Shown here piece after piece: positions 7,901 to 61,300 of a DNA stretch of 64,000 nt; position 1 is the first letter of the stretch, and each line of letters opens with the position of its first letter. Position numbers and translations under genes: made by a program. The notes beneath the pieces were generated by a model. It was not told where the DNA came from. It was given only the letters and a program-made list of their open reading frames with translations, and ran no database searches. This DNA comes from Bugulina stolonifera (taxonomy: Eukaryota > Bryozoa > Gymnolaemata > Cheilostomatida > Bugulidae), in the NCBI GenBank assembly GCA_935421135.1, contig OW285195.1, positions 7,168,701-7,232,700 on the forward strand, read 5' to 3'.

Positions 7901-10900
7901 GATGACACTAGTCTTGACGAAAATAAATTCAAAAATCTCATTTTATTATAAAATATGATTATGGAAAAAAGTTCTCATTTCATTATATACATGTTTGTAT
8001 CTTACCCTTTGGTTTATAGTTGTCTCCCTTACCTATTAGTTTATAGTTGTCTCCCTTACCTTTTAGTTTGTAGTCATCTAAAGGTCTCTCCTCGTCTAGA
8101 AACTTGCCGGCCTTCCCTCCCTGAGGTGAGAGGTAGAACCCATAGTTTAGAGGGTCATGTAGCTGCTCCCCAAACTCCTCTAGCACCAGCCTCTTAGCTT
8201 CCCACACATTCTCATCAGGGTCAAATGTAAAACATTTCTGAAACATAGATTGTATTAAATGGTATTATTATGTGAGCAAGAGGACTTTGACTTTAAATTT
8301 CTATTTGAAAAAGTTACTATAACATACAATGTAGTGACAATGCACTCTGTATTACACACAACAGCTGGTTTAGAGAGGTAGAAGTAGCAATGTAGAAATG
8401 TTTTTTTCAAACAATTTCGGAGAAAAAATTCACCCAAAGTCATTTGAGTTCAAAACATTACGAAGTGCTGATAACTCCGGACAAGCCCAAATATGATGTT
8501 GAATTTCGTTGTTAGTACACAGTATTGTGTAACCTCTTTCTGGAACTACATGTAAGTGTGATCTACTGGACACCCTAACACTGTATGTACTGAGATCATT
8601 CCCTTCTGATAGAATGTTGTACAGTGTGTTGTCATGTAGATAGAAGTACATGGGGTACAGTGGTGTTGTCACAGGTAGTACACCCTTATGTCTCATCATA
8701 TACCCATGTAGAACCGGCAAATACAGCAAAGCATGGCATAAGGTCAGCATGTCTCGAATGTCGGTAATTCCTAATGCCAGTAATTTGTAGTCAAGATAAG
8801 CTAATTATGGTGTTATACTGACTGCTATGACTGTGTATTTACATGTATAGTCACATGTACTCATTACACGACCAAAATAGCTACGCTGATCTAAGTCTTC
8901 GATAATTCTGTCTGCCTGGCTTGCATACACCTAAGCCCTGCCACTTATACAGTTATACATCTACAGTAGGATGGATAATGAAAAGTTTTGACAGGTATTT
9001 GCAGGTGATTATTATAGTTGATGGCTGTTAGATCTACATGTACTTGTGACTAATTATCCATAGCGACCTGCTTTCACCACAGTCTGTTGCCAAAATTCAT
9101 ACTTTAGCCCATTATAAGGAATTACTCCCCCTGTTTTCATGTAGCATAACTTTATATAGTACTGTGTATCTTATTTTTATATATCTTACTTTCCACTTCT
9201 AACATGACCGCGGCAAGAACCTATAACAGACTTTGTGTGAGTGTATTATATAAGATTATGTAATTACACAAGAGGTCATGAGAGGGAACAACCTTGACAT
9301 ATAAGCAATATACAAGTAAGTCTAGAGAAAGATGAGAGAGAAGACAACTTTGATCTGGTATCTCAATGTTTGAAGGTAGAGCATTATGAACTGAGTAAAA
9401 TTAGTACAAACACCTACATGTAGCTGCAAACATATCAGTTCTGTGCTACACCCCAACCAACTGACACCCTACCCAACTGACATCCTATCCAACTAACACC
9501 CTATCCAACTGACACCCTACCCAACTGACATCCTTTCCAACTGACACCCTATCCAATTGACACCCTACCCAACTGACACCCTACCCAACTGACACCCTAC
9601 CCAACTGACACCCTACCCAACTGACATCCTATCCAACTGACACCCTATCCAACTGACACCCTACCCAACTGACATCCTATCCAACTGACACCCTATCCAA
9701 CTGACACCCTACCCAGCTGACACCCTACCCAACTGACACCCTAGCCAACTGACACCCTAACCAACTGACACCCTACCCAACTGACACCCTATCCAACTGA
9801 CACCCTATCCAATACTGACACCCTATCCAATACTGACACCCTACCCAACTGACACCCTACCCAACTGACACCCTATCCAACTGACACTCTACCCAAATGA
9901 CACCCTACCAAACTGACATCCTATCCAACTGACACCCTATCCAACTGACACCCTACCCAACTGACACCTTAGCCAACTGACACCCTACCCAACTGACACT
10001 CTACTTATCAGACACCCCCAAAGGGTGATACTCCCTCATCTTATTAGATAAACTCCGTAACTTTATGCCTATTGTGTTGCAAAGAGTGACTGTTGTTAAC
10101 TCTGTTATACCATTGTTAATGATTTCTGTCTGCTACTGGAATTAGTTTATCAGATTATTAAAGCTCTACAAATAAAACTATTACTACTAATCCTTTAATC
10201 CACAGCAATGAATCAGTGAGATTATCCCTTTGTTAATCCCTGATTGACAATCATACAGTAGGCCTACTAGTAATAGCAACTAACTTATTCACTAGGTAGG
10301 TAGGCCTACCATAAATACACAATGTACATGTACCTCTGGGACACTGTGCCCTAGACTACAGGAAGTAGTTGAAAGCTGGAAAGACAACTGAAGTGCTGTA
10401 ATACAAGTTCCTCCTTGAAAGCCACTTATACAATATTGTGTGTTATGTCTACTACTGCATGAAAGTGAACTAGTGAACTACATGTATATTATGAGGAGAA
10501 ATCCACTCGTCCATTAGAAAATAATTAAGGAAAATAGCATTTCCATTTATGTGAATTTGGATTTAATTTTTTATAACGTTCTGCTCCGGTGGTGCATTTC
10601 AATCTGTTAGATCACACAACAAATAAACAATGTTTATACATGTGTAGGTAGATTATGTCACACATCAAAGTGATAGCTGCCAAAACACACACTCATGAGA
10701 TAATATATTTGTAGTTTTATATCACCTATTATGGGATTTGTGTGACTCATAAACATATGGTCTGCACTGAGACATGTGTGATTTTTAATTTCCCTGATTC
10801 AATATACATAAAGGCCTACATGTAGAATAAGGCCTACATGTAGAATAAGGCCTACATGTAGAATAAGTATCACGCTGCATACTGATGAAATATTAGACCA

Positions 10901-22857: not shown

Positions 22858-23440
22858 CCTACAGGGATGGATATACTGTAACATACAGGAGTGGATATAC
22901 TGTAACATACAGGGATGGATATACTGTAACATACAGGGGTGGGTATACTGTAACATACAGGGGTGGATATATTGTCACGTACAGGGGTGGATATATTGTA
23001 ATATGCAGGAGTAGATGTACCATAAAATACAGGGGAGGATATATTGCAACATACAGGGGAGGATATACTGTACTTTACAAAGGAGGATAAGCTGTACCTG
23101 ACAAGGAGAGCAGACTGTAGCCTACAAAAGTGGATATACTGTAAAATATAGGGATGGATATACTGTAACATACAGGGATGGATATACTGTAAAATACAGG
23201 GGTGGATATATTGCAACATACAGGGGTAGATATGCTGTAACATGCAGTGGTGGATATACTGTAAATTACAGGAGTGGATATATTGCAACATACAGGGGTG
23301 GATATACTGTACTTTACAGAGGAGGAAAAGCTGTACCTGACAAGGGGAGTATATAACTGTAGCCTACAGAAGTGGATATACTGTAGCCTACAGAAGTGGA
23401 TATACTGTAATCTACAAGGGTAGATATACTGTAATTTATT
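22858..23440. repeat. About 24-bp minisatellite
   Basis: Roughly 24 imperfect units built on GGATATACTGTAACATACAG, with divergent units such as those containing AGCTGTACCTGACAAG occurring twice, which suggests a higher-order duplication. Units are near 24 bp, so long frames stay open on both strands. Not coding. Confidence 0.9.
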
Positions 23441-24014
23441 TTATTTATAAGACAAAAAGCTAGAGTACTGTTTTACTCTCCCGAGACTAGTGTTAATCAG
23501 TGTTTAATCAACCAGGTACTGTATTTCTATAGAAAAGCAGTATAATAGTGCAGAATGTCAGACATAACACCAGCTATTTGTCATAGTAACTAAATGATCC
23601 TCTCCTTTTCTTGAGTGGCCGAGAGATCACCTGAGAGAGGACAACTTCTTTTATGGTCAATAGCCCAATTTCCATGGTACACATGGTCTAAATTGTCATA
23701 CAATAATTTCATGTTAACAGGTATCGTAGTATGTGCAATTCGTACCATACGAGGACTTACAAAAATGTAGGTGTGAATGAAGTATATCACATGTCATGCT
23801 AATATTGTAGTGGGTTTTAGCAAGGATTTACCCTCCGGTGTCTCTCGACAACTCCATAGAGTTGTATGGACACTTCGGCAACAGCTTCCGTGTAAGCATT
23901 GATATAATCTCATACCTAAGTGCTTAAACAGCAGAACTCCAGTCCTTTTGGTAGCGCAATGTAGAGTATATTTGATGTTTCAACAGCTTGGAGTAGTAGG
24001 TAAAAGAATAATAT

Positions 24015-24677
24015 TGTGATGGTACGCCCAGTCGTATCTTACATCTGACACTCATTATTGCGTGCATACATGTATATATCTGCTTGTACTCTACTCTTAT
24101 ATTGTTATATATGATTGTATGATTATTTCTAAGTCTTTTAATGCCTTTTATACCCATGTACAGAGGCCCGACCTCTCAGAATCCATTGATATTCATTTTG
24201 TACATGAATTGGACCATTATAAGCAACTTTTGTAGAACCCGACCTATTTTGGGTCGGCCGTCGGGCTTCCGGCGGCCATCTTGTTGCGCAACTTCCGGAC
24301 GACCACACGTCGTCTTTTCCCGACGTCACGTCGGCCGGAAGTCCTTATACTATATAAAGGGCACTGTTTTACTGTTCATTGTCTCAGTCTACACTTGGCT
24401 TTCAATAAAGACACATCTATACTTGATACAGGGACTTTCTCTTCCTTTTACTAGGTCATTCGCTTTGCGAACCGCCTACTAGGTTGAATTACTCTCTTTC
24501 ACTGTATAGTCTGAAGGTCGGACTTGAGATCAGATGGGTCGTCTTTGGTAGTATTTGGGCTACTGAGACCGCTCGATCTTTCATGTAATGCGAAGTCCTA
24601 TTACCACTCATAGGCACTTCATTTCTGGGTCGATAGTCGTCCAAGGACGACCGCACCAAATCACAGAAACCATTACA
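24015..24677 (+). repeat. 5' LTR
   Basis: 663 bp, TG...CA ends. U3 holds a GC-rich promoter block and a TATA box at 24351. AATAAA lies at 24404-24409, so transcription probably starts near 24380 and R is short, about 50 nt. An open frame of 113 codons inside it also appears in the 3' LTR and is a by-product, not a gene. Confidence 0.95.
24267..24360 (+). promoter_or_regulatory. LTR promoter: YY1-like, ETS-like, CRE-like motifs and TATA box
   Basis: Within about 95 bp: GCCATCTTG (24275-24283, YY1-like), the palindrome TTGCGCAA (24284-24291), ACTTCCGG (24291-24298, ETS-like), GACGTCAC (24322-24329, CRE-like), CCGGAAGT (24335-24342, ETS-like) and TATATAAAGG (24351-24360). This matches the layout of animal housekeeping promoters. 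The motif names are from general knowledge; binding is inferred. The same block recurs in the 3' LTR 4349 bp downstream. Confidence 0.65.
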
Positions 24678-24678
24678 T

Positions 24679-24698
24679 TGGTGGCAGCGGTGGGATTC
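24679..24698 (+). other. Primer binding site, complementary to tRNA-Leu(AAG) 3' end
   Basis: TGGTGGCAGCGGTGGGATTC begins one base after the 5' LTR. Its reverse complement, GAATCCCACCGCTGCCACCA, reads as the T-arm and acceptor end of metazoan tRNA-Leu(AAG) plus the added CCA. This is the minus-strand priming site. Confidence 0.85.
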
Positions 24699-25011
24699 TA
24701 AGGTCGTACTCTTACGATACGAAGAGAAGGAAGGTGACCTCGGCCTCGGGTGACCGACCGACCTCATTCTTCAATACTTCTACGGCGATTTAGGACTCGG
24801 ACCCGGGAACCTTGGATACGAGAAGGTGACAAACGCTAAAGTGCACCCATAATTCTCGTGGTTCCGCTGGATGTAGCCCGACCTACGCCGGATCTTCAAT
24901 CAAAGACCGACCTCGGATCCAGAACAGATTGACGGTACTCAGTACGACCATTAGGCCGACACGGCCTAACAAACCAAAGCAGTTTTACTCACTACCCGAC
25001 ACCCTACCGAC

Positions 25012-28000
25012 ATGGACCGAATAAGGAACCTGCTTCAGCAGGTAATGTACCAGGCCGAGCAGGACCTCAAAACACTCAGCTACAACGGACAAGAGGACGT
25101 CGAACTCTTCATAGAAGACTTCACCGCTATGGCAGAGCGTTGCAACTGGAATGACAGAGCACGCCTCATACGGCTTAGAGCCGCCCTACACGGGCCCGCA
25201 CAAGAATGCGGCCGACCCCGATCAGTCGAAGAGATATTTTCCCGACTGAGGGAACAGTATGGACTATCTGCCAGAGAAGCCCGATGGAAGCTGTCCACCC
25301 TGGAACAGCCAGCCCACACGTCACTCAGAGACTATGCAGCTCTCATCCGCAGACTGATGGCAACAGCCTTTGAAGGGGCACCCCCTGCATCTTTGGAAGA
25401 GTGGGCTGTAGAGAAGTTCTGCCTCTCAGTCCACGACCGTGGCCTACGCTGGTACTACACATGGTTACAGCCCGATGATATGGAGGAAGCCCTGGAAACC
25501 GGAACAGCCTTCCAGAGTAACAAGGGTGGCAAGGCCAACCCTCCAAAGCCACAAGAGGAGCTTCCCGCCGACCTCCTACGGAAAGCCCTACATACCCTCC
25601 TACAGAAATGTCAAGGCACAGATGACGGGCCGACGGACACACTAGAACCCGTCCCAGTAGACGAACCCATTCCTACTGGAGCCCAGCAAGGAGAAGGTGG
25701 ACCACCCCACATTGGTCGTCCACAAAGGCCGACGGATACACCAGAACCCGTCCCAGTAGATGAACCCATTCCTACTGAGGCCAAACCCAAGAAGAGTGGA
25801 CCGAACCACAATGGTCGTCCACTGAGGCCGACGGACACATCAGAACCCGTCCTAGTGGAAGAACCTATACCCACTAAGCCTAAAGTCAAGAGTAGCCACT
25901 CCAAACAGAAAACCCCACGGGTAACTAGCCCATCACACTCCAGGCCGACGGCGTCACCTGCACCCGTCACAGTGGATGAACCCAAACCCACTAGGCCAAC
26001 ACCAGGCAAGAAACGACCCCACTCAAAGCCGAACACATCCGAAGTGACCACAGATCACCCCCCAAGGCTGAAAGGACGACTCATATGTCCCGCCCCGTCG
26101 GACCAAACCTCACAAGGTAAACCCGACCTATCCTCAACTCAGAAGGATCAACAGGATCTGGCCACGTCCAGACCCGACAATAATCAGCAATTGATTCCCG
26201 CCCAAATTCAGTATGCCCCGACGGACGACTTATCGTGTGTAGAACTGCCAGACACTACAGTCCAAGTCCGCGGCCTGAGGATCGACACGGAGCAAACCGT
26301 GCTGGACCAAAACAGAGAGCTACCTCTGAACCTCTCGAAGAATGTTCAAGTTTCAACAGCCCGACCTGATCCAGAGGACGCGAAATGTCGCGTAGCCGAA
26401 CCTCAAGACATAATCCCAACGACGGAGATACAGTCTATACTGCCAGCAGTTCAAGTACACAAAGCAAAACGCTCTTGTACGGAATCTAGCATTGCCGAAC
26501 AGTTTCAGCCGAAGATACAGATTGCCGAACTCTCGAAGTCCCCTAAAGTGGATAAGAAGCAATCGAAGGCAACTATTGCCGTGTTCCCGCGCTTATTTGA
26601 CGAGTCGAACAAAGAAAATGTGCCTGAGGCATTGCCTACAATTGAGCCAATTGCTCATCCCTCGGCTAGTATAAATACGACAGCTCACAGACGAGTAGTC
26701 CTTTCTCGTCCAGCACTTCACCGAAGCACATGTACCCCTACATGTAGCAACTCCTGCACTCCTCGTGTCACTGGTGAAGTTAATAGCAGCACTCGTATCC
26801 TTTCTCATTCTCGTGCAGACGAGACGGCTACTCCTCCTAGTATGGATCACTCCAATCAGCCTGTCTTCACGGCTGAAGGTAAGCAAATCTCAGTGTTACC
26901 AGTAAGGACCGAATCAGAATTAGAGGTACAATCAACACCTGTGAGACTGTCAGGCATGAATTCTCTCTCCCTCCCCACTCGGCATAGACCAGTCGGGACA
27001 GAGGAGAATTCCCCTGAACATTCTCACAGGAAAGAGCATGAGTTAGAAGGCGGAGGCTACACATCAGATGAATTATGTGTTGTAGATGCATCTCCTCTAC
27101 GGAAGACGCTCACGCCAGACGGCACGCCTCCACCCACTCCACCTCCTGTTACCTCTACCCTGAAGTTAGCTACAATTAAGCTGCACAAACTCACTGACAA
27201 GCTGCCCATCGAGTCGTCCCAACATTCCGGAGCCACTAAGCCATGGATTAGTACCTTCACTCAACAAGCCCGAGACGACTTGGCTAGAAGGAGTCAACCT
27301 AACCTCAAATGTGCAAAGTGTGGCTTCTCCGGCACCCTCAAGAGACTGAACATTCACATTTGGCAGCACTTTGCCCGCTTCTACTGTCGCTGCGGACGCA
27401 GCTCAGTTAGCCGTGATGCTCTAGGCCATCACTTCAGTCGGAGATCCAGTATCTGTGGGAAACGTCTCTTCCTCACGGACGGGCCCAGCTATGGGGCCCT
27501 CATGGAATGGTGGGGCGTAAAGGATCCCCCACCATTTCTACCATGTCGTCCTACTATGGACGGACAGTCGGGGACAAATAAACCAGTTTATTTGCCCAGC
27601 TCCTCCTCCACAAGGAAGCGACCTCCCAAGAGACGGCACAGCCCATCTCCAGGACAGACCCCCGACTCCGCACCTTCTGATGCTACCTCCTCCTCTTCCT
27701 CGTCGCCTACCACTCCTGCTGGACCTTCTCTCTGGCGACCTCCTGCTAGTACCTCCGCAGTAAGTGTCGGCCCCCCTGGCCGACGCGGACGTCTACCCTC
27801 TTGGAAGACAAGGCCTGCTCCACGGAAGAGTATGCCTGCTCCTCAGTCAGGCCCTCTCTACGAAGGCTCTCCACCCAAGGTCTCATGTGCAGCTTCTTGT
27901 ACAGCTTCTCCGACTCTACTGATCGAGCCACTGCAGCCCAGGCCCACACTAGAGGTCTCACCGCACCGCTCTCCTTATACACCTGCCAGGGACCTACTCC

Positions 28001-28350
28001 GAGCCACTCCAGACTCTCCTGCCGTCCAGTCCCCACCTCCTGCATCTCCTGTACTAACTCAGCCGAATGCCACACGTCCTGCATCTCCGGATCCGTCGTT
28101 CATGCAACAACTTGCTGAACTCAAGCCACGGATTCACTACCTTGCCAGCCGTCAACAGGTGGGGGACACTCTACGCCAACATCTGGAACCTCTCTATGCT
28201 CGAGAAATAGCTCTTCGTGAACTAGCCAACCAGCATCTAAACCACCCCCAACAACTCCAGCTCGTACAAGCAGACTTGGATATAGTATCCAGAGAATCTA
28301 CACTGTACCGTACCCTTCTTAACTTGACACTAGAGACACCCATGACCTAG
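25012..28350 (+). CDS. Gag-like protein with internal repeats and C2H2 zinc finger (1112 aa, single exon)
   Basis: Residues about 1-165 have the Ty3/Gypsy Gag pattern: YNGQEDVELFIEDF, NWNDRARLIRLRAALHGPA, LREQYGLSAREARWKLSTL, then a DYA..I..L...A helix and an EW.V..F segment. Residues 170-700 are Pro/Ser/Thr-rich and include four copies of a motif like PVPVDEPIPT, near residues 207, 240, 273 and 311. A canonical C2H2 finger is C767-x2-C770-x11-H782-x3-H786. It is followed by a second Cys/His cluster (C792, C794, H806, H807, C815) and a DGPSYGALMEWWG segment. The tail is a predicted helical region after residue 1030. There is no CCHC knuckle and no enzymatic domain. The frame is intact from an ATG after a 330-nt leader to a stop 13 nt before the 3' LTR. 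The probable role is particle formation and RNA packaging, using enzymes of another element; the finger function is unknown. Confidence 0.85.
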   Translation: MDRIRNLLQQVMYQAEQDLKTLSYNGQEDVELFIEDFTAMAERCNWNDRARLIRLRAALHGPAQECGRPRSVEEIFSRLREQYGLSAREARWKLSTLEQPAHTSLRDYAALIRRLMATAFEGAPPASLEEWAVEKFCLSVHDRGLRWYYTWLQPDDMEEALETGTAFQSNKGGKANPPKPQEELPADLLRKALHTLLQKCQGTDDGPTDTLEPVPVDEPIPTGAQQGEGGPPHIGRPQRPTDTPEPVPVDEPIPTEAKPKKSGPNHNGRPLRPTDTSEPVLVEEPIPTKPKVKSSHSKQKTPRVTSPSHSRPTASPAPVTVDEPKPTRPTPGKKRPHSKPNTSEVTTDHPPRLKGRLICPAPSDQTSQGKPDLSSTQKDQQDLATSRPDNNQQLIPAQIQYAPTDDLSCVELPDTTVQVRGLRIDTEQTVLDQNRELPLNLSKNVQVSTARPDPEDAKCRVAEPQDIIPTTEIQSILPAVQVHKAKRSCTESSIAEQFQPKIQIAELSKSPKVDKKQSKATIAVFPRLFDESNKENVPEALPTIEPIAHPSASINTTAHRRVVLSRPALHRSTCTPTCSNSCTPRVTGEVNSSTRILSHSRADETATPPSMDHSNQPVFTAEGKQISVLPVRTESELEVQSTPVRLSGMNSLSLPTRHRPVGTEENSPEHSHRKEHELEGGGYTSDELCVVDASPLRKTLTPDGTPPPTPPPVTSTLKLATIKLHKLTDKLPIESSQHSGATKPWISTFTQQARDDLARRSQPNLKCAKCGFSGTLKRLNIHIWQHFARFYCRCGRSSVSRDALGHHFSRRSSICGKRLFLTDGPSYGALMEWWGVKDPPPFLPCRPTMDGQSGTNKPVYLPSSSSTRKRPPKRRHSPSPGQTPDSAPSDATSSSSSSPTTPAGPSLWRPPASTSAVSVGPPGRRGRLPSWKTRPAPRKSMPAPQSGPLYEGSPPKVSCAASCTASPTLLIEPLQPRPTLEVSPHRSPYTPARDLLRATPDSPAVQSPPPASPVLTQPNATRPASPDPSFMQQLAELKPRIHYLASRQQVGDTLRQHLEPLYAREIALRELANQHLNHPQQLQLVQADLDIVSRESTLYRTLLNLTLETPMT

Positions 28351-28363
28351 TGTGAGGGGGCTA
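28351..28363 (+). other. Short polypurine tract before 3' LTR
   Basis: The bases TGTGAGGGGGCTA lie between the ORF stop and the 3' LTR. The purine run GAGGGGG is the likely plus-strand primer. It is shorter than many retroviral tracts. Confidence 0.6.
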
Positions 28364-29026
28364 TGTGATGGTACGCCCAGTCGTATCTTACATCTGACAC
28401 TCATTATTGCGTGCATACATGTATATATCTGCTTGTACTCTACTCTTATATTGTTATATATGATTGTATGATTATTTCTAAGTCTTTTAATGCCTTTTAT
28501 ACCCATGTACAGAGGCCCGACCTCTCAGAATCCATTGATATTCATTTTGTACATGAATTGGACCATTATAAGCAACTTTTGTAGAACCCGACCTATTTTG
28601 GGTCGGCCGTCGGGCTTCCGGCGGCCATCTTGTTGCGCAACTTCCGGACGACCACACGTCGTCTTTTCCCGACGTCACGTCGGCCGGAAGTCCTTATACT
28701 ATATAAAGGGCACTGTTTTACTGTTCATTGTCTCAGTCTACACTTGGCTTTCAATAAAGACACATCTATACTTGATACAGGGACTTTCTCTTCCTTTTAC
28801 TAGGTCATTCGCTTTGCGAACCGCCTACTAGGTTGAATTACTCTCTTTCACTGTATAGTCTGAAGGTCGGACTTGAGATCAGATGGGTCGTCTTTGGTAG
28901 TATTTGGGCTACTGAGACCGCTCGATCTTTCATGTAATGCGAAGTCCTATTACCACTCATAGGCACTTCATTTCTGGGTCGATAGTCGTCCAAGGACGAC
29001 CGCACCAAATCACAGAAACCATTACA
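28364..29026 (+). repeat. 3' LTR
   Basis: 663 bp, the same length as the 5' LTR and with no difference that I could find by reading. Its AATAAA (28753-28758) would end the transcript. Followed by ATAT, the target-site duplicate. Confidence 0.95.
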
Positions 29027-29790
29027 ATATATAGACTATAGTTGAAATTGCATACCTTATATACTAAATAATGTTTGATTGCAAACGCACCAATAAGAAG
29101 TAGAAGTGCTTCCGACCGAAGGCCGGAAGCCAATCATTAAAGGGATTGCACCATGACGGCAGAGAACGACTAACAATGAGGAAATACTAGCCGTCAGAAA
29201 TACTTAATTAATGTAGGATTGCGAAAATCCGGGTCAGTAAGGAGAGTTGTCGGTCCATTACTATTGACGATAATAGAATATAAATAGACTGCTTTGCATT
29301 CGTAATTGCTTCTACCGTTTACACGCTAAAAATATGATATATACAGTGTATATAAGAAAGGTTATTAGATTATACTGAGAAAATACATGTCAATATAATC
29401 TAACTAGTTGAACATAGCATTCATTATCACAATTTTGATTGGACCAAGTTGTGTTGCATGATTATGTAACATGGGGTAGCCTACACAGGTAAGAGAAAAC
29501 AATTTCACAGTGAGCATGTAAAAGAAGAAAGGCAATTCCATATACAAATTGTGTGTAACAAAAAAATGTTTGTGTTGCATAGTCTAGTATAATTATAATA
29601 GTAGGACCATTATTTTCATGGGTGTATATTTGCATGAAGAACATACTATTTAAAAGATTTGACAACTCCAATTCCTTGAATTATTAGAATGTAATATATT
29701 ATACAATGTATAATATACTCTACTGTAAAGTCACTAGAAAGCAGAAGTTTGTTTACCTTTTTCATGTGTGTATTATAGTAATAGTATTAC

Positions 29791-30597
29791 TGTAATGGTT
29801 TCTGTGTTTTGGTGCGGTCGTCCTTGGACGACTATCGACCCAGAAATGAAGTGCCTATGAGTGGTAATAGGACTTCGCATTACATGAAAGATCGAGCGGT
29901 CTCAGTAGCCGAAATACTACCAAAGACGACCCATCTGATCTCAAGTCCGACCTTCAGACTATACAATGAAAGAGAAAGATCCGACCTAGTAGGCAGTTCG
30001 CTAAGCGAATGACCTGGCAAAAGGAAGTGAAGATCTCTGTATCAAGTATAGATGTGTCTTTATTGAAAGCCAAGTGAAGACTGAGACAATGAACAGTAAA
30101 ACAATGTCCTTTATTTAGTATAAGGACTTCCGGCCGACGTGACGTCGGGAAAAGACGACGTGTGGTCGTCCGGAAGTTGCGCAACAAGATGGCTGCCGGA
30201 AGCCCGACGGCCGACCCAAAATAGGTCTGGTTCTACAAAAGTTGCTTAAAATGGTCAAATTCATGTACAAAATGAATATCAATGGATTCTGAGAGGTCGG
30301 GCCTCTGTACATGGGTATAAAAGGCATAAAAAGGACTTAGTAACATTCATGTAACTACATACAATAACATATAGTAAAATACATGAATAAGAAATGAGCA
30401 TAAACACATGGAGACATGTATATAGACGGTAATTAAGTGGTTTGAACATGCAATGCAATTGAAGGTAAGTATACGAACACTAATTATGAGAATGTTAGTG
30501 TCAGATGAGTAGCGCTGTAACAACTACTAGGCACTTAGGGTGCGGTGGAGCTTCGTCCGGGAGTTGGGGTCGTATACAAATGTCCTGTACCATCACA
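29791..30597 (-). mobile_element. Solo LTR of the same family, opposite orientation
   Basis: Reverse complement of an LTR related to that at 24015: it starts TGTAATGGTTTCTGTG and ends GTACCATCACA, with TTAC on both sides (29787-29790 and 30598-30601) as a 4-bp target duplication. It is 807 bp, about 144 bp longer, because the outer U3 (roughly 30335-30585) is different sequence. The promoter block with CAAGATGGCTGCCGGAAG is kept, but the TATA element is altered (CTAAATAAAGG). It lacks an internal region, so it probably arose by LTR-LTR recombination. Confidence 0.9.
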
Positions 30598-42000: not shown

Positions 42001-45000
42001 ATTAGCAATATAAATAAAATATATATAATACAAATAATAAATAAAAATACAAGCAATATTATAGGCCTATATTATAAAATAATATTATCTATATTCAATA
42101 ATATAATAAAAATATTGATTTTTTTCAAATTTTTGCAACTGTAGAGTCACCCGTTGGAATTTCTTATCAAGAAAAATATTTACCTGTAAGTTGAACAAAT
42201 AAATTAAGATTTACTACACACCTGAAAAACTTGGTTAGAGATGTTTGTCTTACCTTTTTCATCTAGGTTCCATTCTTTTCTATTTTATTTGGGCAACTGG
42301 GCAACAAACCGCGACTACTAACTTTGACCTTGACCATAGCAAGTAAAAGATTAACTTGAAATGTTATAAAGTCATAGCCCATCTTTTGTTAATCAGCATT
42401 AGCTAAGTTGGGGCTTTAGCTCAATCCCCATAATTACTGCTTAAGCCTAATGTTAGCTGGCTAACTGCTATTCACCGCGGCACACTTATGTGTATGAATT
42501 GCTAAGAGATGGTGAATGCATTCAAACGACGCTTTTGATTGATTTTTCTGATTTTATTGGACTGTGCAATAATATAATAAATGTCTTTTATTATTTTTTT
42601 TTTGACATAGAAAAGGGGGGTCGCGCGACCCTGGCGCCAGTAGCAAAAAACGCCACTGACCTACTTTTACTGCTTTGTATACAAACTTCACCTTTCTATG
42701 CACATGCATAATATATATATACTGTATATATACATAATGCAAAGTATATTTTGATTTTAAACAGGCCAAGCAGAATCTCCGTGATAAAGTACGAGGGGTA
42801 GCTACTACCCGACCCTACACTCCAAGAGAAGATGGTAGGACTTTGTTTGGGCCAACATCAGCAGATGCATTGGATAGAGCTGCTAGCTCTCTAAGGTGCG
42901 ACTTGCTATATGATTATTACATTCCGCCAACACTACTGCTGCTGATACTGCTGCTGGTACTACTGCTGTTTATTCCTTTTTTGTGAACAATATGCACCAT
43001 TCTGCTATACATTATTAAATGATTCTGTTGCATTTTTAGCATAAACTCTCAGTTTTTGGATGGGTTGGATACATCCCGTCCCTCTAGTGCTATTAGCACT
43101 GGGTCTAGACCAGTAAGTGGATTGAGACCTCTCTCAGGTTCCAGTACGTCTTCTGCAGTATATAACTCACCACACAGACCACCCACGGAGTCATCTCAAA
43201 GACCACTCATGGAAGCATCCTCCAGGATGGTAACTTCAGCATCTTCCGGAAGCATCTCATCTGCAGTATCACGTAGATTAGCTCCTCTAGAGAGAGAGGA
43301 AGGGGTAAGCATGTGGGACCTAGTCAGCAACAGTCGTAATTATGTAGGAGAATCAAATTGTGCGGATATGCTAACGAGGTCACTTGGTAACGTACATATT
43401 ATACATAGTAATGTAGTATGGAGATTGTAGGCTGAACCTGTCATCGATTCCTGGCAATAACAGGGCAGAGTAGTGGTTTACATGCTGAGGGTCACAGGTT
43501 GAAGTCCTACTCACTCCTATCATGGAAGATCAGCTTTCCTCCCAAGGCCCAGTTTGCATCTCACTATCTCTCCTGCCAGCTGCAGCTTTATAGATTCATT
43601 AAATAGAGTGAAAAACTGCTTAACAGGATAAAGAGGCCAATTTACTAGAACTGTGCAAATGAAGAGTCACCAAACACCCATATTTTATTGTCGCGAGATT
43701 TTTATACTTAAGTTGCTTGTAGGATGATGGCAAACCGCCAAGACCTCTCTCTGGTGAGAACAGACGGCGAGTCAGGAGTCGTCAGAGTCACAGAAGTTCT
43801 TCAACAACAGTGAGCAGTCCTCCTGCTCAAGGAGAGGAAACCAATAGATCTGGGTCACTGACTGACCTAAATAACTCAGACGATAAGGTGAGGATTGCTG
43901 GTAGAAAGCAGAACCTTGTCATCTGCATAGATGAAATAGTAAATTAAATAAACTGGCAATGGCTCCTTTTGCAAGTAATTTAATTTTTTTTCTATTGTTA
44001 ATTTCAATAGATGCGGTCTCTCAACTCTGGAGGAGCACAACTCTCATTTATTCCAATTTTTATGTGTGCAACTCTTTAATGCGCTGATACAAAAGGAACT
44101 TATCAATGATGGTGTTTTATCCCCACACTTGTTCTGTAGATGTTACTTATTTACTTTTAGGTGCTTGGGAGCCGGCGTGTTCACAGTGGGCCTAAAGAGA
44201 GGACAAATTCTCATTTTGTAACATTAGAGGAGAGGGGAGAGGGTGATGGGCAGGAGGTGACACCCCATACTAAAAGGCTCACTTCTAGTGCAGGTGACAT
44301 GTCTAAGTTTGTCTTTTCAGCAAGTCAACAAATGAACAAATTAAGTATAGTGCCTGGTGTAATGTGTGTTATATTGGAGCAGATAGTTGCCATACTGTCC
44401 ACTGCTGTATACTCTCCAATAACTCAACGTCACAGTGTTGAGGAATGTATGTTCTCTTACCATATACAATTGGTAAACAAGACATCTACAGTGACGTATG
44501 TAATAAACACTTACTTTTAGATGTGTAATATAGAACATATCAATGTGAACGAGCTTCTTCACAAATTCTTACATCGCTAACAAGAGAGTATCAGCACTAA
44601 GTAGTTTCCTAGAAAGTCTATTGACCAGGATTTTAATTATTTAATGATTAGTACTAAGTGGAATCAATACCTACCATCAGCCCAATAAAGTAAACAGCTG
44701 GCAAAAGTTGGTCCAATGATAGATGTGCATTTCATGCACATATAGGAGCACTATCTGCATACGTCTACATTTTTGTGTACACAATGTACATAGATCTATA
44801 TGTACAGTATGTGTGCACAATGTACATACATCTATATGTACAGTATGTGTGCACAATGTACATACATCTATATGTACAGTATGTGTACACAATGTACATA
44901 CATCTATATGTACGGTATTTGTGCACAATGTACATAGATCTATATGTACAGTATGTGTACACAATGTACATACATCTATATGTACGGTATGTGTGCACAA

Positions 45001-48000
45001 TGTACATAGATCTATATGTACAGTATGTGTGCACAATGTACATACATCTATATGTACGGTATGTGTACACAATGTACATAGATCTATATGTACGGTATGT
45101 GTACACAATGTACATAGATCTATATGTACGGTATGTGTACACAATGTACATAGATCTATATGTACGGTATGTGTACACAATGTACATAGATCTATATGTA
45201 CGGTATGTGTGCACAATGTACATAGATCTATATGTACGGTATGTGTACACAATGTACATAGATCTATATGTACAGTATGTGTACACAATGTACATAGATC
45301 TATATGTACGGTATGTGTACACAATGTACATAGATCTATATGTACGGTATGTGTACACAATGTACATAGATCTATATGTACGGTATGTGTGCACAATGTA
45401 CATAGATCTATATGTACGGTATGTGTACACAATGTACATAGATCTACATGTATATGTACGGTATGTGTACACAATGTACATAGATCTATATGTACAGTAT
45501 GTGTGCACAATGTCTTTCTTTTTGCGTGGCATTTATCATTGATCAGTCAGGGACACTTTACCACATCTGTGAGAATAACCCATCACTGGTATATCCCTAC
45601 ACAACAAGTATTATATCATGTATAATATTATATCTGTTATACTACTACAGACATCCCTGGCTGTTCATTGATATATCCCTACACACCATGTATTATATCA
45701 TGTATATTATATCTGTTATACTACTACAGACAAACAAGGGAGAGGAAACTCCGAGTATATTGAGTCTACTCTTCAGCCTCTTATTGATACACTTAGACGA
45801 CCAAACATTGATGACTCAGTCATATCCGATACATGTAATACCATTTATGAGCTACTGGATACAGGTGAGTCATATCCGATACATGTAATACAATATATGA
45901 GCTACTGGATACAGGTGAGTAGTGAAAAAGATTACATGTAACTAATTAAATGTTTCATATGAATAGACTGTATTTATCGTCCATAATTCTTTGTAAAATA
46001 GTCTGTATTTATCGTCCATTATTTGTTGGTTATAGTCTATAAATGCTGTCCTTGTGTTATTGAATGTTTCTCTATATTGCAGCCCATCTATTAGGCAAAG
46101 CTTGTAGTAAAAGAACATCTATTCTCAAGTCTGTATTCAAGTCTATGGAGAGGTCCAACCCAGCTGTACTTCTGTCTCTTTCCAGATTAGCTCTCGCTGT
46201 AAGTGTAAATATATAATATACAGTACATTGCTCGGCCGTGCTGTCAGTTGCAAGTGCGGCCGTTGATGAACGCTTGTCTGGACCTGTCTTTAGTCATACT
46301 TGATGTCACTTTATTGTAATGCAATTTAGACTTTTGGGTGTCGTTATCAGTAATATGTTTAATTATTAGTGTAGTTTTGATATTAAATTGATTTTTCTAA
46401 CATTTGCGATACCCTTTTTATATACCTTCTACAGCTGAGAGTTAGCGAGAAGTACTTGACCTTAGCCTGCAAAGTAGCTTTTAAAGTCAGTCGAGATCGA
46501 AATAACGATGACTTGTTTATGGAAAATAACATTATTGGTAAGTACATGTATATATTTGATGTGCTGTGCGGTGACTTAACCATTGTCTAAAGAGAATACA
46601 ATGTAGTAGCTAGTTACTGTATACCATCTGCATGGATGCTCTACACTTTGTAGGAATTCCCACAAGCTATTTACCAGTTAGGGATTAATTGAGCCTTTTC
46701 TTTGGTGAATCTCTCAAAATAACAGGCTATCGAATTCATATAAACAACATGTAGGTTTATTAGTGGAATGCAACAAGTCTGTGAGCAGCTACCCCACATG
46801 GGGTAGGAGATGCTAGAAGAGGAACTTCCTCTTCTAGACTATATGCATGTATATACAACTTTACCAGGACTATTCCTTCACAGGTGACTGCATGTCAATT
46901 GTCTTTGTTATCTTCATTAGATCTGATGCTAGACACAGTGATAGGTTTAGACTGTGAGAAACAAGAAGATGCTGTTCTATACTGTTGTGGAGTTATTAAA
47001 TTCTTAGCCACCAACCCTAAACTAGCTGAGATTTTGACTAAGAAATGTACTATCTACACTCTCTCTTCCATCTTGTCTAAGATAAATAAGAAGGTAAGTC
47101 ACACACACTACCGGCTCCTGTCATAACCTTCTGTCATAACCTCCTGTCATAACCTCCTGTCATAACCTCCTGTCATAACCTCCTGTCATCAAACTATCTT
47201 ATTATGTCGCCAAGTCACACACATCACTGACAGCTGTCAGCATGTTGTGTTAACAAGCCTGACACATTATTGGCTAATGTCATAACCTCATGTCATCAAG
47301 TCATCTCGTTATGTCGCCAAGTCACGCACATTACTGACAAAACACTTTTTATAGGTTCATGCCACTCTCTACATGTTATACATTTCTCTCATGATTATAG
47401 TGTACACCTTCATTCTCTTCCTACCTTCCATGTGAAGTTTAAAGGGCTGTTCACTAGTCGCATTTAGTAAGGATGGATGACTCCTTGAAATGTTTCCCCC
47501 AATCATTAATTTCACTGTATCTCATGTCATGCCTAATAAGGTTTTTTCTTTTTTACATTTACATGTAGAAGCTGTTATTTTCTGTGATCAAACTTATTTG
47601 CTTATGGAAGCATATTCTACTCAAAGTTTTATCGTCTGCTTGCCTACAGATAGATGACAGCGATAAGCCCAAAGAGATCTACAGTCGGGTGCTGCTGCTC
47701 GTTACGGCAGCTTTCCGTAGCTTTGCTGAGTTGAAGTCTTGTGTTAGTCAGTTCACGTCCCACTGTGTCATAGATGAGCTATGTGTTACAGCTGTTCTCC
47801 TACCTAATGAGACTGACATGATGGTGAACGTCTGCAGTACTTTCAGGTGAGTGGAGACAACTCCATCCAGTAATACGGACAATTTCAGACTCTCAGGGAT
47901 TACTTTGAAGACAAATCCTATTGACTCATCAGTTTTATTGACTATGATATAGATTACCTGTATTGTATACAATGTACATTGTATGTGTGATTGCACTAAT

Positions 48001-58315: not shown

Positions 58316-61300
58316 ATGAGCTCTGCATTAAATTCCATAATATTAGACTGTCTGCTGATAGCAACGGCTGTATACCAAGGTACGTCAAATAGTAATGTAA
58401 TTATATAAAGTATTTCTAGCCTGTAATTTATTTATATAAATATAATAAACTTTATTTCGTAAGCTGTATTATTTTGGAAATGCATTCGTCATCTAATATT
58501 ACTGGAATGTATGTGATGAAGCATTTATTATGAAAAGTGTTTCTTGTGTGCAACCTGTGTTCTATACTTACAATAATATTTTGACTAGCCTTGTTGCGTT
58601 TGAGAAAGTCTGGTTTACGGTGGAGTGTACGTCATATAACACGAGTGTCCTTGTGGCAATCTTGTGCTGAAGGCTGTGCTTGTTTGTATCTTTTGACAAT
58701 CTAAACTGTTTAACATGAGATTTCCTTAATGAAACTAAAATAATAATTATTGTTGTTTTTATGAAACTACTAAATTCTCACCCATACACCTTATTAGTTT
58801 CAGCTTGGAAAGAACACGTCGTTACACACGGATTAGTTATCATATCATCTTTTTTTGTTTTTGATTGAGTAATGTATTATTTATTACCTTATTTTTGCCA
58901 AACTATTTTGTGCAAGCATAATTAATATTATATTTCAAAGTGAAAACAAGGCAACAAAGAGCCTATCAATGTCAGAAAGTATTGCTAAGCCATGTATTTA
59001 CCAATCTTTATTATTATACATGTACATGTAGTACATCGTTAGTCCTGTGTGGGATTACATGCAATGCAATACAGGAGAGTAGGTGCAAAAGTGAAGAAAC
59101 TTGAGATAGCCTTTGCTCTTCGCCGCAGAAGTTTTCTTCTCTATATTTTGTTGGTAGACCACCCATACCCCAAGCCCCGATCCCAAACAAGGAACTAAGG
59201 ATATCTCAATTTCTCCACACAAGTGGATCCGGTGTGACAGCAGTAAAAATCCCTGAGTGCCATGAAAAGCCAATCAAGGCTATAACAACTGGGGGAGGGG
59301 GGCGCGGGGCGGGGCGAAGGCAGGCATTTGGGTCGGCTCAAAAACTGACTCATTCACAAACATTTTAGCGTCGACTTCACAGTCTAACAGGAAGTTTAGG
59401 TAAACTGGTCACCTGTAGATACATAGTTGTGTTATAAGCATGAGGCAGGAATACCCTAACTCAGAAATCATCTTCCCACAACTGAAAATAGTTGTTCCAG
59501 CCCTGGTAAAGGCACTAACAGAAGGCAAGAAATTATACATGTAGGACTAAGTTATACAAATAAAGCAAGTAAAGTTTGTGTTGTGCATCCAAGGAACTCT
59601 GACATTAACTTCAGCACATAATTTCCGTGAAATATGTGCTGCAACCATTAAAAGACATCAATTTTTTGTCTAGTAACTCAACGTCATTATTAGAGTGATG
59701 AAATGTTGCCTCATTTAGTGATGAAAAGTTTACCAGCTTATCATGTCCATTCATTACCACAACTAATATGTTCTTTAGGTTTTCATGTATTTGAAAGATT
59801 TACATTCTTAAAAGCCTCTAATGACAACTAGAGAGCAATATTTAGACAATAATCCAATTAAGTACATACTTGTATGTACTGTGTTATATAATCCTGTGGG
59901 AGCAGCCGTGGCTTAGGGGTTAGAATGCTGAGCTTTCATGCTGAAGGTTCCAGGTTCGAATCCCGGTCACGGTGGTGTTAGGAAGAGCATTCAGCCACAA
60001 TTGCTCCTGTGCCTCATATAAAAGTCCTTGGGGTCATTGCAAACCGGCATGACTTCAAGGCAACTCCTCTACCCCCGCCAAAAAAAGGCCATGTCATCTG
60101 GGCCTTTCCCACAGGGAGTTGGCCAGTACTGGCACCTGGCAGTACAAGCTGCAAGGGGCTGGTCACGCTGAGGAGTATTAGCCGGTGAGTTTTTATATAA
60201 TCTTGTGATTTATTTCAGTGGTGCCACTACAACCTATACCCAGAGTGCGGCGTTCAGGGGAGACAATCGCAGTAGCAGCAGGACAAACGTTGCAACTGGA
60301 ATGCGTTGTAGAAAATGTACCAAGAAAGCTAAAGGTATTTATTAGACCTAGAACTAATAACAATACTGATTAATACTGTATTTATTTAAAAACACATGCT
60401 ATACCTATATACCTCTGTAGATGTACAAAACCCGTCAAGGTCAAAGTCCTTGTCAAGCAAATATAATAACGATGTTCCAACGTTCCGCATATTTTACAAC
60501 GTATACATACCAATATATTCAATATAATGTATTAACTTTTAGATAAAATATACCAGACACTTTACACAAAAGTCTAATTACTTATTCTGGAGGCATAGCT
60601 TAGGTATCTATACTTTACATAGCCCATGCACTTATACCTTACATAGCCATAAGTAGCCCCTATACCATAAGTAGCCTGAGTACCTATACCATAAGTAGCC
60701 TGAGTACCTATACCATAAGTAGCCTATGTATCTATACCACCAGTAACCTATGTACCTATATATTATATTATAAGTAGCCTATGTACCTATACCATAAGTA
60801 GCCTATGTACCTATACCATAAGTAGCCTATGTACCTATACCATAAGTAGCCTATGTATCTGTACCATCAGTAACCTATGTACCTATACCATATTATAAGT
60901 AGCTTATGTACCTATACCATAAGTAGCCTATGTACCTATACCATAAGTAGCCTATGTACCTATACCATAAGTAGCCTATGTACCTATACCATAAGTAGCC
61001 TATGTACCTATACCATAAGTAGCCTATGTACCTATACCATAAGTAGCCTATGTACCTATACCATGAGTAGCCTATGTACCTATACCATAAGTAGCCTATG
61101 TACCTATACCATAAGTAGCCTATGTACCTACATGTATACTTTACATAGCCTGTGTACCTACACTTTACATAGCATGTGACAATGTCAATGCCATGGTACA
61201 TGTAATTAGAAAATACTGTCTAAACATGACGATGTACTGGGAATTCTGCATGCCATTTATAGACATAAATAATCCATCAAGTGAATGATATTAGTGAGAA

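What the first reader, a model, noticed from the sequence alone, without database searches (positions are those of the whole stretch)
24015..29026. Intact gag-only LTR retrotransposon carrying a zinc finger, apparently recently active
Seen: 663-bp LTRs without visible differences, 4-bp ATAT target duplication, primer site, purine tract and a single uninterrupted 1112-codon ORF. Known: gag-only non-autonomous LTR elements are described mainly in plants, and animal Gag genes are usually domesticated singletons. Inference: this is a mobile, trans-complemented animal family whose Gag lost the CCHC knuckle and has a C2H2 module instead.
Basis: partly seen in the sequence, partly recalled or inferred. 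Interest (0 to 1): 0.75.

Follow-up and report, generated by a model that had tools for sequence, protein, structure and literature searches.

The report
Gag-only retrotransposon with intact partner
A bryozoan genome carries hundreds of recently copied jumping elements that keep only a capsid-type gene with an unusual zinc-finger-like module, and they appear to be copied by the enzymes of a much rarer element with nearly identical ends.

Summary
The window lies in the bryozoan Bugulina stolonifera. The element has identical 663-bp LTRs, an ATAT duplication, a tRNA-Leu(AAG) primer site, a purine tract and one 1112-codon ORF. The ORF starts with a Gag capsid domain (Pfam Retrotrans_gag above cut-off) and later carries a C2H2+C2HC-like module. 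Its start occurs 273 times in the genome; 118 of 150 scored copies lie in frames of at least 1100 codons. The capsid domain (nonsynonymous/synonymous ratio 0.24) and above all the zinc module (0.036) are under purifying selection. A partner was found: a Ty3/gypsy lineage with 27 places, 7 in single frames of 1573-1580 codons. It shares the LTR (up to 99.7%), leader (about 95%), last 64 internal bases (100%) and ATAT target preference, but its Gag is only 32-36% identical. A third, Gag-plus-protease element (122 copies) uses the same leader and most of the LTR. So one LTR/leader chassis carries three different Gags, and by these counts gag-bearing non-autonomous copies outnumber the Pol source about 15 to 1. 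The nearest described kind is the wheat Cereba/Quinta pair. Mobilisation by the partner is strongly inferred, not shown by experiment.

The parts
24011..24014 (.). 5' copy of the ATAT target-site duplication (second copy 29027-29030)
   Evidence: matching flanks also in other copies
24015..24677 (+). 5' LTR, 663 bp, TG...CA; TATATAA at 24351, AATAAA at 24404
24679..24698 (+). primer binding site, complement of the host tRNA-Leu(AAG) 3' end
24678..25011 (+). 334-nt leader shared with the autonomous partner (first 309 nt 94.8% identical to L070) and with the Gag-protease family
25012..28350 (+). single ORF, 1112 codons, Gag-type protein
25012..25521 (+). Gag capsid (CA) domain, residues 1-170
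   Evidence: PF03732 6.6e-07, 29.9 bits, above cut-off; model pLDDT 85 and Arc/PNMA2/retroviral capsid matches; ratio 0.24 for residues 1-165
25598..25891 (+). 33-codon tandem repeats; copies differ here by in-frame indels, often of 99 nt
27277..27561 (+). most constrained block (residues 756-850) with C-x2-C-x11-H-x3-H followed by C-x-C-x12-H-x7-C
28300..28363 (+). last 64 internal bases, identical to the 3' end of the partner copies L070 and L072; they hold the last 16 codons of both ORFs, the stop and the purine tract
28351..28363 (+). polypurine tract region
28364..29026 (+). 3' LTR, identical to the 5' LTR

Best explanation
This is a young, gag-only, non-autonomous Ty3/gypsy-type LTR retrotransposon that makes its own large Gag protein and borrows protease, reverse transcriptase, RNase H and integrase from a rarer autonomous element (L070/L072 type) in the same genome. 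Shown: same or nearly the same LTR, leader, primer site, purine tract and target-site preference in both; partner copies in single frames of Gag-Pol length; selection on this element's capsid and zinc domains; hundreds of copies, many young. Inferred: both RNAs start in the same LTR promoter; their Gags co-assemble into mixed particles; the shared leader is the packaging signal; the partner's enzymes copy and integrate both RNAs; LTR sequence is exchanged by template switching in mixed particles.
For: Partner: L070 has LTRs 99.7% identical to the window LTR, leader 1-309 at 94.8%, last 64 internal nt 100%, and protease, RT, RNase H and integrase in Ty3/gypsy order. 27 of 150 scored RT places belong to its lineage (at least 96% aa identity; older relatives such as L071 included), 7 of them in frames of 1573-1580 codons. 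Target site: ATAT in 8 of 19 readable gag-only 5' flanks and in 5 of 5 of the autonomous lineage; background in the window 1.2%. Copies: 273 ORF starts; 118 of 150 scored zinc-module places lie in frames of at least 1100 codons. Young: 0, 0, 1, 1, 0, 0 differences over 663 bp in the six other gag-only LTR pairs compared (of nine seen), 0 in the window. Selection: 0.24 capsid, 0.036 zinc block, 0.41-0.71 linkers and repeats. LTR exchange: autonomous L068 (the L070 element) and gag-only L047 LTRs are identical over 570 columns, and starred branches of the LTR tree force at least 3 label changes for the autonomous group.
Against: No RNA, protein or mobilisation data. The seven full-frame partner copies were seen only as open-frame lengths; their LTRs were not read. 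The two partner copies read in full (L070, L072) are both broken in pol. The partner's Gag differs by about two thirds of its residues, so co-assembly is not obvious. The packaging role of the leader is inferred from conservation only. Copy counts come from short patterns and from capped candidate lists. The LTR tree has few well supported branches (4 starred of 27), and in the leader tree starred branches force only 1 change. Another autonomous family (L079) shares the last 10 LTR bases and the primer site.
Confidence: 0.85

Rival explanations
1. It is a passive internal-deletion derivative of the partner whose leftover ORF does nothing for mobility.
For: Shared LTR, leader and last 64 internal nt, including the final 16 residues of both proteins in the same frame.
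Against: Its Gag is only 32-36% identical to the partner lineage's, and a starred branch (100/99) separates the partner's Gags from it. Most indels between copies are multiples of three and the ratio is 0.24 and 0.036 in two domains.
Confidence: 0.04
2. The Gag-zinc protein does not supply capsids for the partner but diverts the partner's Pol to its own RNA, as an interfering parasite. This rival shares the trans-mobilisation of the best explanation and differs in who gains, so the two overlap.
For: Gag-bearing copies far outnumber the partner (273 and 122 against 27), and the Gags differ strongly. The selection data fit equally well.
Against: Nothing direct. 7 of 27 partner-lineage places are still in full-length frames, so interference has not ended partner activity.
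Confidence: 0.25
3. The enzymes come from another autonomous family, and the likeness to L070 only reflects shared ancestry of the LTRs.
For: Many other Ty3/gypsy-like RT places are present. L079, another autonomous family, shares a 29-nt stretch, the last 10 LTR bases plus the primer site, at 96.6%.
Against: Beyond those 29 nt the fetched stretch of L079 shows no DNA match to the window element, and that of L080 none at all (L080's LTR may not lie within the stretch), while L070 shares nearly the whole LTR and leader.
Confidence: 0.06
4. A host gene or domesticated gag that happens to sit between LTRs.
For: Long ORF under selection.
Against: Hundreds of copies, with matching target duplications where both ends were read.
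Confidence: 0.01

Closest known systems
RLG_Cereba / RLG_Quinta pair of wheat (PMC11302176; abstract and section 5 read)
   Same: Autonomous single-ORF Gag-Pol element and a shorter gag-only partner with identical primer site and LTR termini; Gag conserved at protein but hardly at DNA level; the gag-only ORF also carries an extra domain (DUF1).
   Different: Animal host; near-whole LTR and leader shared, not half; the extra region is a zinc-finger-like module under extreme constraint; two different gag-bearing families on one chassis; gag-only copies outnumber the partner here, while in Einkorn 935 full-length Quinta stand against 2,658 Cereba.
TR-GAG elements of plants (only term counts in the listing seen; details recalled)
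   Same: LTRs, primer site, purine tract and a Gag ORF without pol.
   Different: Described in plants; here a partner with near-identical LTRs was found.
HeT-A of Drosophila (recalled, no call)
   Same: Animal gag-only retroelement that relies on another element's enzymes.
   Different: Non-LTR telomeric element; not related in mechanism of integration.
Arc, PNMA2, PEG10 (domesticated Gags; fold matches)
   Same: Capsid fold.
   Different: Host genes, not mobile (recalled).

Membership tests
Ty3/gypsy (Metaviridae) LTR retrotransposon, for the partner | Protease, RT, RNase H, then integrase | tested here: met
   PF13650, PF00078, PF17917/PF17919, then PF17921 and PF00665 in that order on the two frames of L070
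Ty3/gypsy (Metaviridae) LTR retrotransposon, for the window element | Own RT and integrase | tested here: not met
   One long ORF only, no Pfam Pol domain in it
Non-autonomous gag-only LTR element (TR-GAG / Quinta kind) | LTRs with TG..CA, target duplication, primer site, purine tract | tested here: met
Non-autonomous gag-only LTR element (TR-GAG / Quinta kind) | Gag domain present, Pol absent | tested here: met
   PF03732 29.9 bits, cut-off 24.1, on residues 1-182 (the whole ORF gave no hit); capsid fold
Non-autonomous gag-only LTR element (TR-GAG / Quinta kind) | Autonomous partner with the same primer site and LTR termini | tested here: met
Non-autonomous gag-only LTR element (TR-GAG / Quinta kind) | Demonstrated mobilisation by the partner | not testable with these tools
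   No expression or mobility data
LARD / TRIM | No coding capacity (recalled definition) | tested here: not met
   1112-codon ORF under selection
Domesticated gag gene | Single or few immobile copies | tested here: not met
   273 ORF starts
C2H2 zinc finger | Match to a curated zinc-finger profile | tested here: inconclusive
   Best zf-C2H2_4 12.5 bits, cut-off 27; motif and invariant ligands; model unreliable, pLDDT 37
Gag with CCHC knuckle | C-x2-C-x3-5-H-x3-5-C | tested here: not met
   None in the ORF; present in L080 of the same genome

The most novel reading that the evidence does not exclude
An animal retrotransposon that works as a multipart system: one rare chassis element codes Gag and Pol in a single frame, hence presumably at one-to-one ratio, and the bulk of the particle protein is outsourced to two far more numerous elements on the same LTR/leader chassis that carry Gags of other lineages, one of them with a strictly conserved two-finger module as a new RNA- or chromatin-binding part. 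The other autonomous families sampled (L079, L080) keep Gag and Pol in overlapping frames, so the loss of that device in the partner may be what made the outside Gag supply pay.
Probability: 0.3. Interest if true: 0.75.

Novelty: new variant of a known kind. Interest (0 to 1): 0.6.

Why it matters
Gag-only partners of LTR elements are, in the papers seen here, described from plants. Here is an animal case with the partner in hand, with young copies and full-length frames on both sides, and with selection data that show the borrowed-enzyme element still needs its own protein. It makes a general question testable: whether such elements are parasites, or Gag suppliers on which the enzyme source has come to lean. 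The zinc module, more constrained than the capsid itself, marks a function of Gag that none of the profile libraries searched names.

Tried and rejected

Counts with limits: one search scored 40 of 300 candidates, 40 of 1,929, 40 of 59, 40 of 298, 150 of 537, 150 of 671. The 30 junction loci L039-L068 are the first 30 exact matches in coordinate order, on two chromosomes: 21 gag-only, 4 Gag-protease, 5 autonomous lineage, sorted by DNA likeness of about 1.5 kb after the junction. L069, L070, L071 and L072 are the same elements as L039, L068, L058 and L064. In the codon counts rows L005 and L012 are one locus, and L007 and L008 look like a segmental duplicate; the window was a row. In one search six loci (L001, L009, L010, L068, L073, L074) were left out as duplicates of others or without use, matches under 250 bases were dropped (L006 among them), and rows with identical 12-base flanks on both sides were counted once.

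Literature: eight searches, most of whose listings are capped. No title or abstract start in those listings describes a gag-only LTR partner pair in an animal or in Bryozoa; most subscription papers are not held. Seen: PMC11302176 abstract and section 5; PMC10213821 passages. All other papers: listings only.

Full report
Observation. The element is at the stated coordinates. The LTRs 24015-24677 and 28364-29026 are identical over 663 bases, with ATAT on both sides. One base after the 5' LTR, 24679-24698 is the exact complement of the 3' end of the host tRNA-Leu(AAG) plus CCA; ARAGORN names tRNA-Leu(aag) in 2 of 2 fetched genome sites out of 8 that carry that 3' end. The ORF 25012-28350 runs to 13 bases before the 3' LTR.

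Host. The window is part of a 234,951,659-base genome held as 27 contigs. It is an animal, a cheilostome bryozoan.

Copies. The LTR-primer-site junction occurs 478 times with at most 2 mismatches (control 0), the start of this ORF 273 times with at most 3 (control 0), and the first look for the LTR alone had 1,929 candidates, of which 40 were scored. A search with the zinc module scored 150 of 537 candidates: 130 score exactly like the window's own copy, 128 lie in open frames of at least 1000 codons and 118 in frames of at least 1100; 2 have a stop within the match. The commonest frame lengths, 1159 (38 places) and 1126 (21), differ by 33 codons, the unit of the tandem repeats at 25598-25891. 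Since the best matches are scored first, 118 of 150 is not an unbiased rate.

Age. Six of the nine other gag-only-sized LTR pairs were compared: they differ at 0, 0, 1, 1, 0 and 0 of 663 positions, and the window pair at 0. These pairs come from the best LTR matches, so they are the young end of the family; other gag-only copies have LTRs down to about 96% and ORF pieces down to about 91% identity with the window.

Not a truncated copy. Among the 40 best LTR matches there are 11 same-strand pairs with element spacing. Ten, the window's own (4,349 bp) included, are 4,022-4,556 bp apart, too short to hold a pol besides this ORF. The eleventh, 5,693 bp, is the autonomous element L070.

Partner. 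L070 (C2:7173500-7181000) has LTRs 99.7% identical to the window LTR and identical to each other, a leader 94.8% identical over 309 bases, and a last 64 internal bases that are identical, including the purine tract. Both proteins end in the same 16 residues. Between lies a Gag-Pol frame with protease, RT, RNase H and integrase. The L070 copy is itself broken by a frameshift between RNase H and integrase; L072, 95% identical, is broken elsewhere in pol. Copies in longer frames exist: of 27 places of this lineage in the RT search (at least 96% amino-acid identity, three of them partial; 150 of 671 candidates scored) 7 lie in single frames of 1573-1580 codons, the length expected for the whole Gag-Pol. 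A DNA search gave 27 places at 82% or more, 21 of them at 91% or more (40 of 59 candidates scored). In the partner, Gag and protease share one frame; in two other autonomous families of this genome (L079, L080) Gag and Pol lie in overlapping frames.

Third family. L069 (the locus of L039) and three further loci (L042, L053, L054) share the leader and the LTR from position 84 on, but carry another Gag. In L069, the one read further, a Gag frame of 314 codons overlaps a 548-codon frame with a protease-like domain (Asp_protease_2 22.6 bits, just under the 24.3 cut-off), and no RT is found before a truncated 3' LTR. Its start occurs 122 times (control 0). Its Gag is nearer to L079 and L080 (49-50% identity) than to the partner lineage (38-41%), while the window Gag is a long branch of its own (31-38% to all six others); a starred branch (100/99) separates the partner's Gags from the other four. 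So three Gags of different lineages use one LTR/leader chassis.

Shared integration. Flanking 4-mers just outside complete LTR ends are ATAT in 25 of 46 upstream cases and 20 of 29 downstream cases; 19 of the other 21 upstream ones keep a central TA. All 8 complete solo LTRs read there have matching duplications, the non-ATAT ones (TTAT, GCGA, GTAC, ATAA) included. By type, among the 30 junction loci, ATAT stands before 8 of 19 readable gag-only copies (2 unreadable) and 5 of 5 of the autonomous lineage; the 4 Gag-protease loci were unreadable because their LTR 5' end differs. The rate of ATAT in the window outside the element is 1.2%. The same preference is what one integrase serving both would give; the autonomous sample is small.

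LTR exchange. In a tree of 31 LTRs the autonomous L068 (the L070 element) is identical over 570 columns to the gag-only L047 and one step from the window, while other autonomous LTRs lie elsewhere among gag-only ones; starred branches force at least 3 changes for the autonomous label. In the leader tree L068 groups with the autonomous L064 (81/82 support, not starred), and starred branches force only 1 change. Few branches are well supported (4 of 27 and 1 of 18). This suggests, and does not prove, exchange of LTRs between the two kinds, as template switching between co-packaged RNAs would do.

Selection. In 36 rows the capsid part (residues 1-165) has a ratio of nonsynonymous to synonymous change per site of 0.24 (distinct variants 38.5 against 44.5). 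The zinc block 756-850 has 0.036 in 17 rows (6 against 32). Linkers and repeats have 0.41-0.71 and the two C-terminal parts about 0.28. The zinc block differs from residues 331-755 by Fisher p 2e-7 (variants are counted once per codon but are not fully independent). Most indels between copies are multiples of three: frame-breaking ones occur in 5 of 48 partial rows and in 1 of 4, and 2 of the 48 rows (L036, L038) have a premature stop. An element that merely rode on the partner's proteins would not show this; the protein most likely acts preferentially on the RNA that encodes it, or on its kin (inference).

CCHC. No CCHC motif is found in the window ORF or in the Gag parts of L069, L070, L071, L072 and L079; L080 has one, above the Pfam cut-off.

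Reading. The closest described system is wheat Cereba/Quinta, where a single-ORF autonomous element and a gag-only partner share primer site and LTR termini and the gag-only element is proposed to supply Gag (PMC11302176, abstract and section 5). The bryozoan system has the same build in an animal. It adds a second gag-bearing family, a strictly conserved zinc module and the reversed abundance. Its working is inferred: common LTR promoter, Gag made mostly by the gag-only copies, Pol from the partner, shared leader for packaging, tRNA-Leu priming, integration at ATAT. Whether the gag-only element helps or robs its partner is open.

Noticed in passing
window 29791-30509 (- strand): An older LTR on the opposite strand, 93.5% identical over 720 bases to the LTR region of the Gag-protease family (L053), begins 765 bp beyond the element.
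   Followed up: partly
L069 (C1:371500-381499); start pattern genome-wide: A 122-copy family with Gag and a protease-like domain in overlapping frames, 32-codon repeats and, in the one copy read, no RT, on the same leader and most of the same LTR.
   Followed up: partly
L077:1290-1590: Synonymous divergence from the window is about 0.34 in the zinc block against 0.14-0.19 in its neighbours, with 2 nonsynonymous differences; suggests recombination with an older version of the module.
   Followed up: partly
L007 and L008 (C11, about 26 kb apart): Two copies share a 1-nt deletion and the same 12-base 5' flank, so one probably arose by segmental duplication and not by insertion.
   Followed up: no
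L080:1038-1919: Another autonomous Ty3/gypsy family of this genome keeps a CCHC knuckle in its Gag (zf-CCHC above cut-off) and has Gag and Pol in overlapping frames.
   Followed up: no
L079:890-918: A different autonomous family shares only the last 10 LTR bases and the primer site with the window element.
   Followed up: no
window 9448-10017, 22868-23458, 44774-45513, 60596-61130: Tandem repeat arrays; that at 44774-45513 has a 36-bp period open in several frames, that at 22868-23458 a 24-bp period.
   Followed up: no
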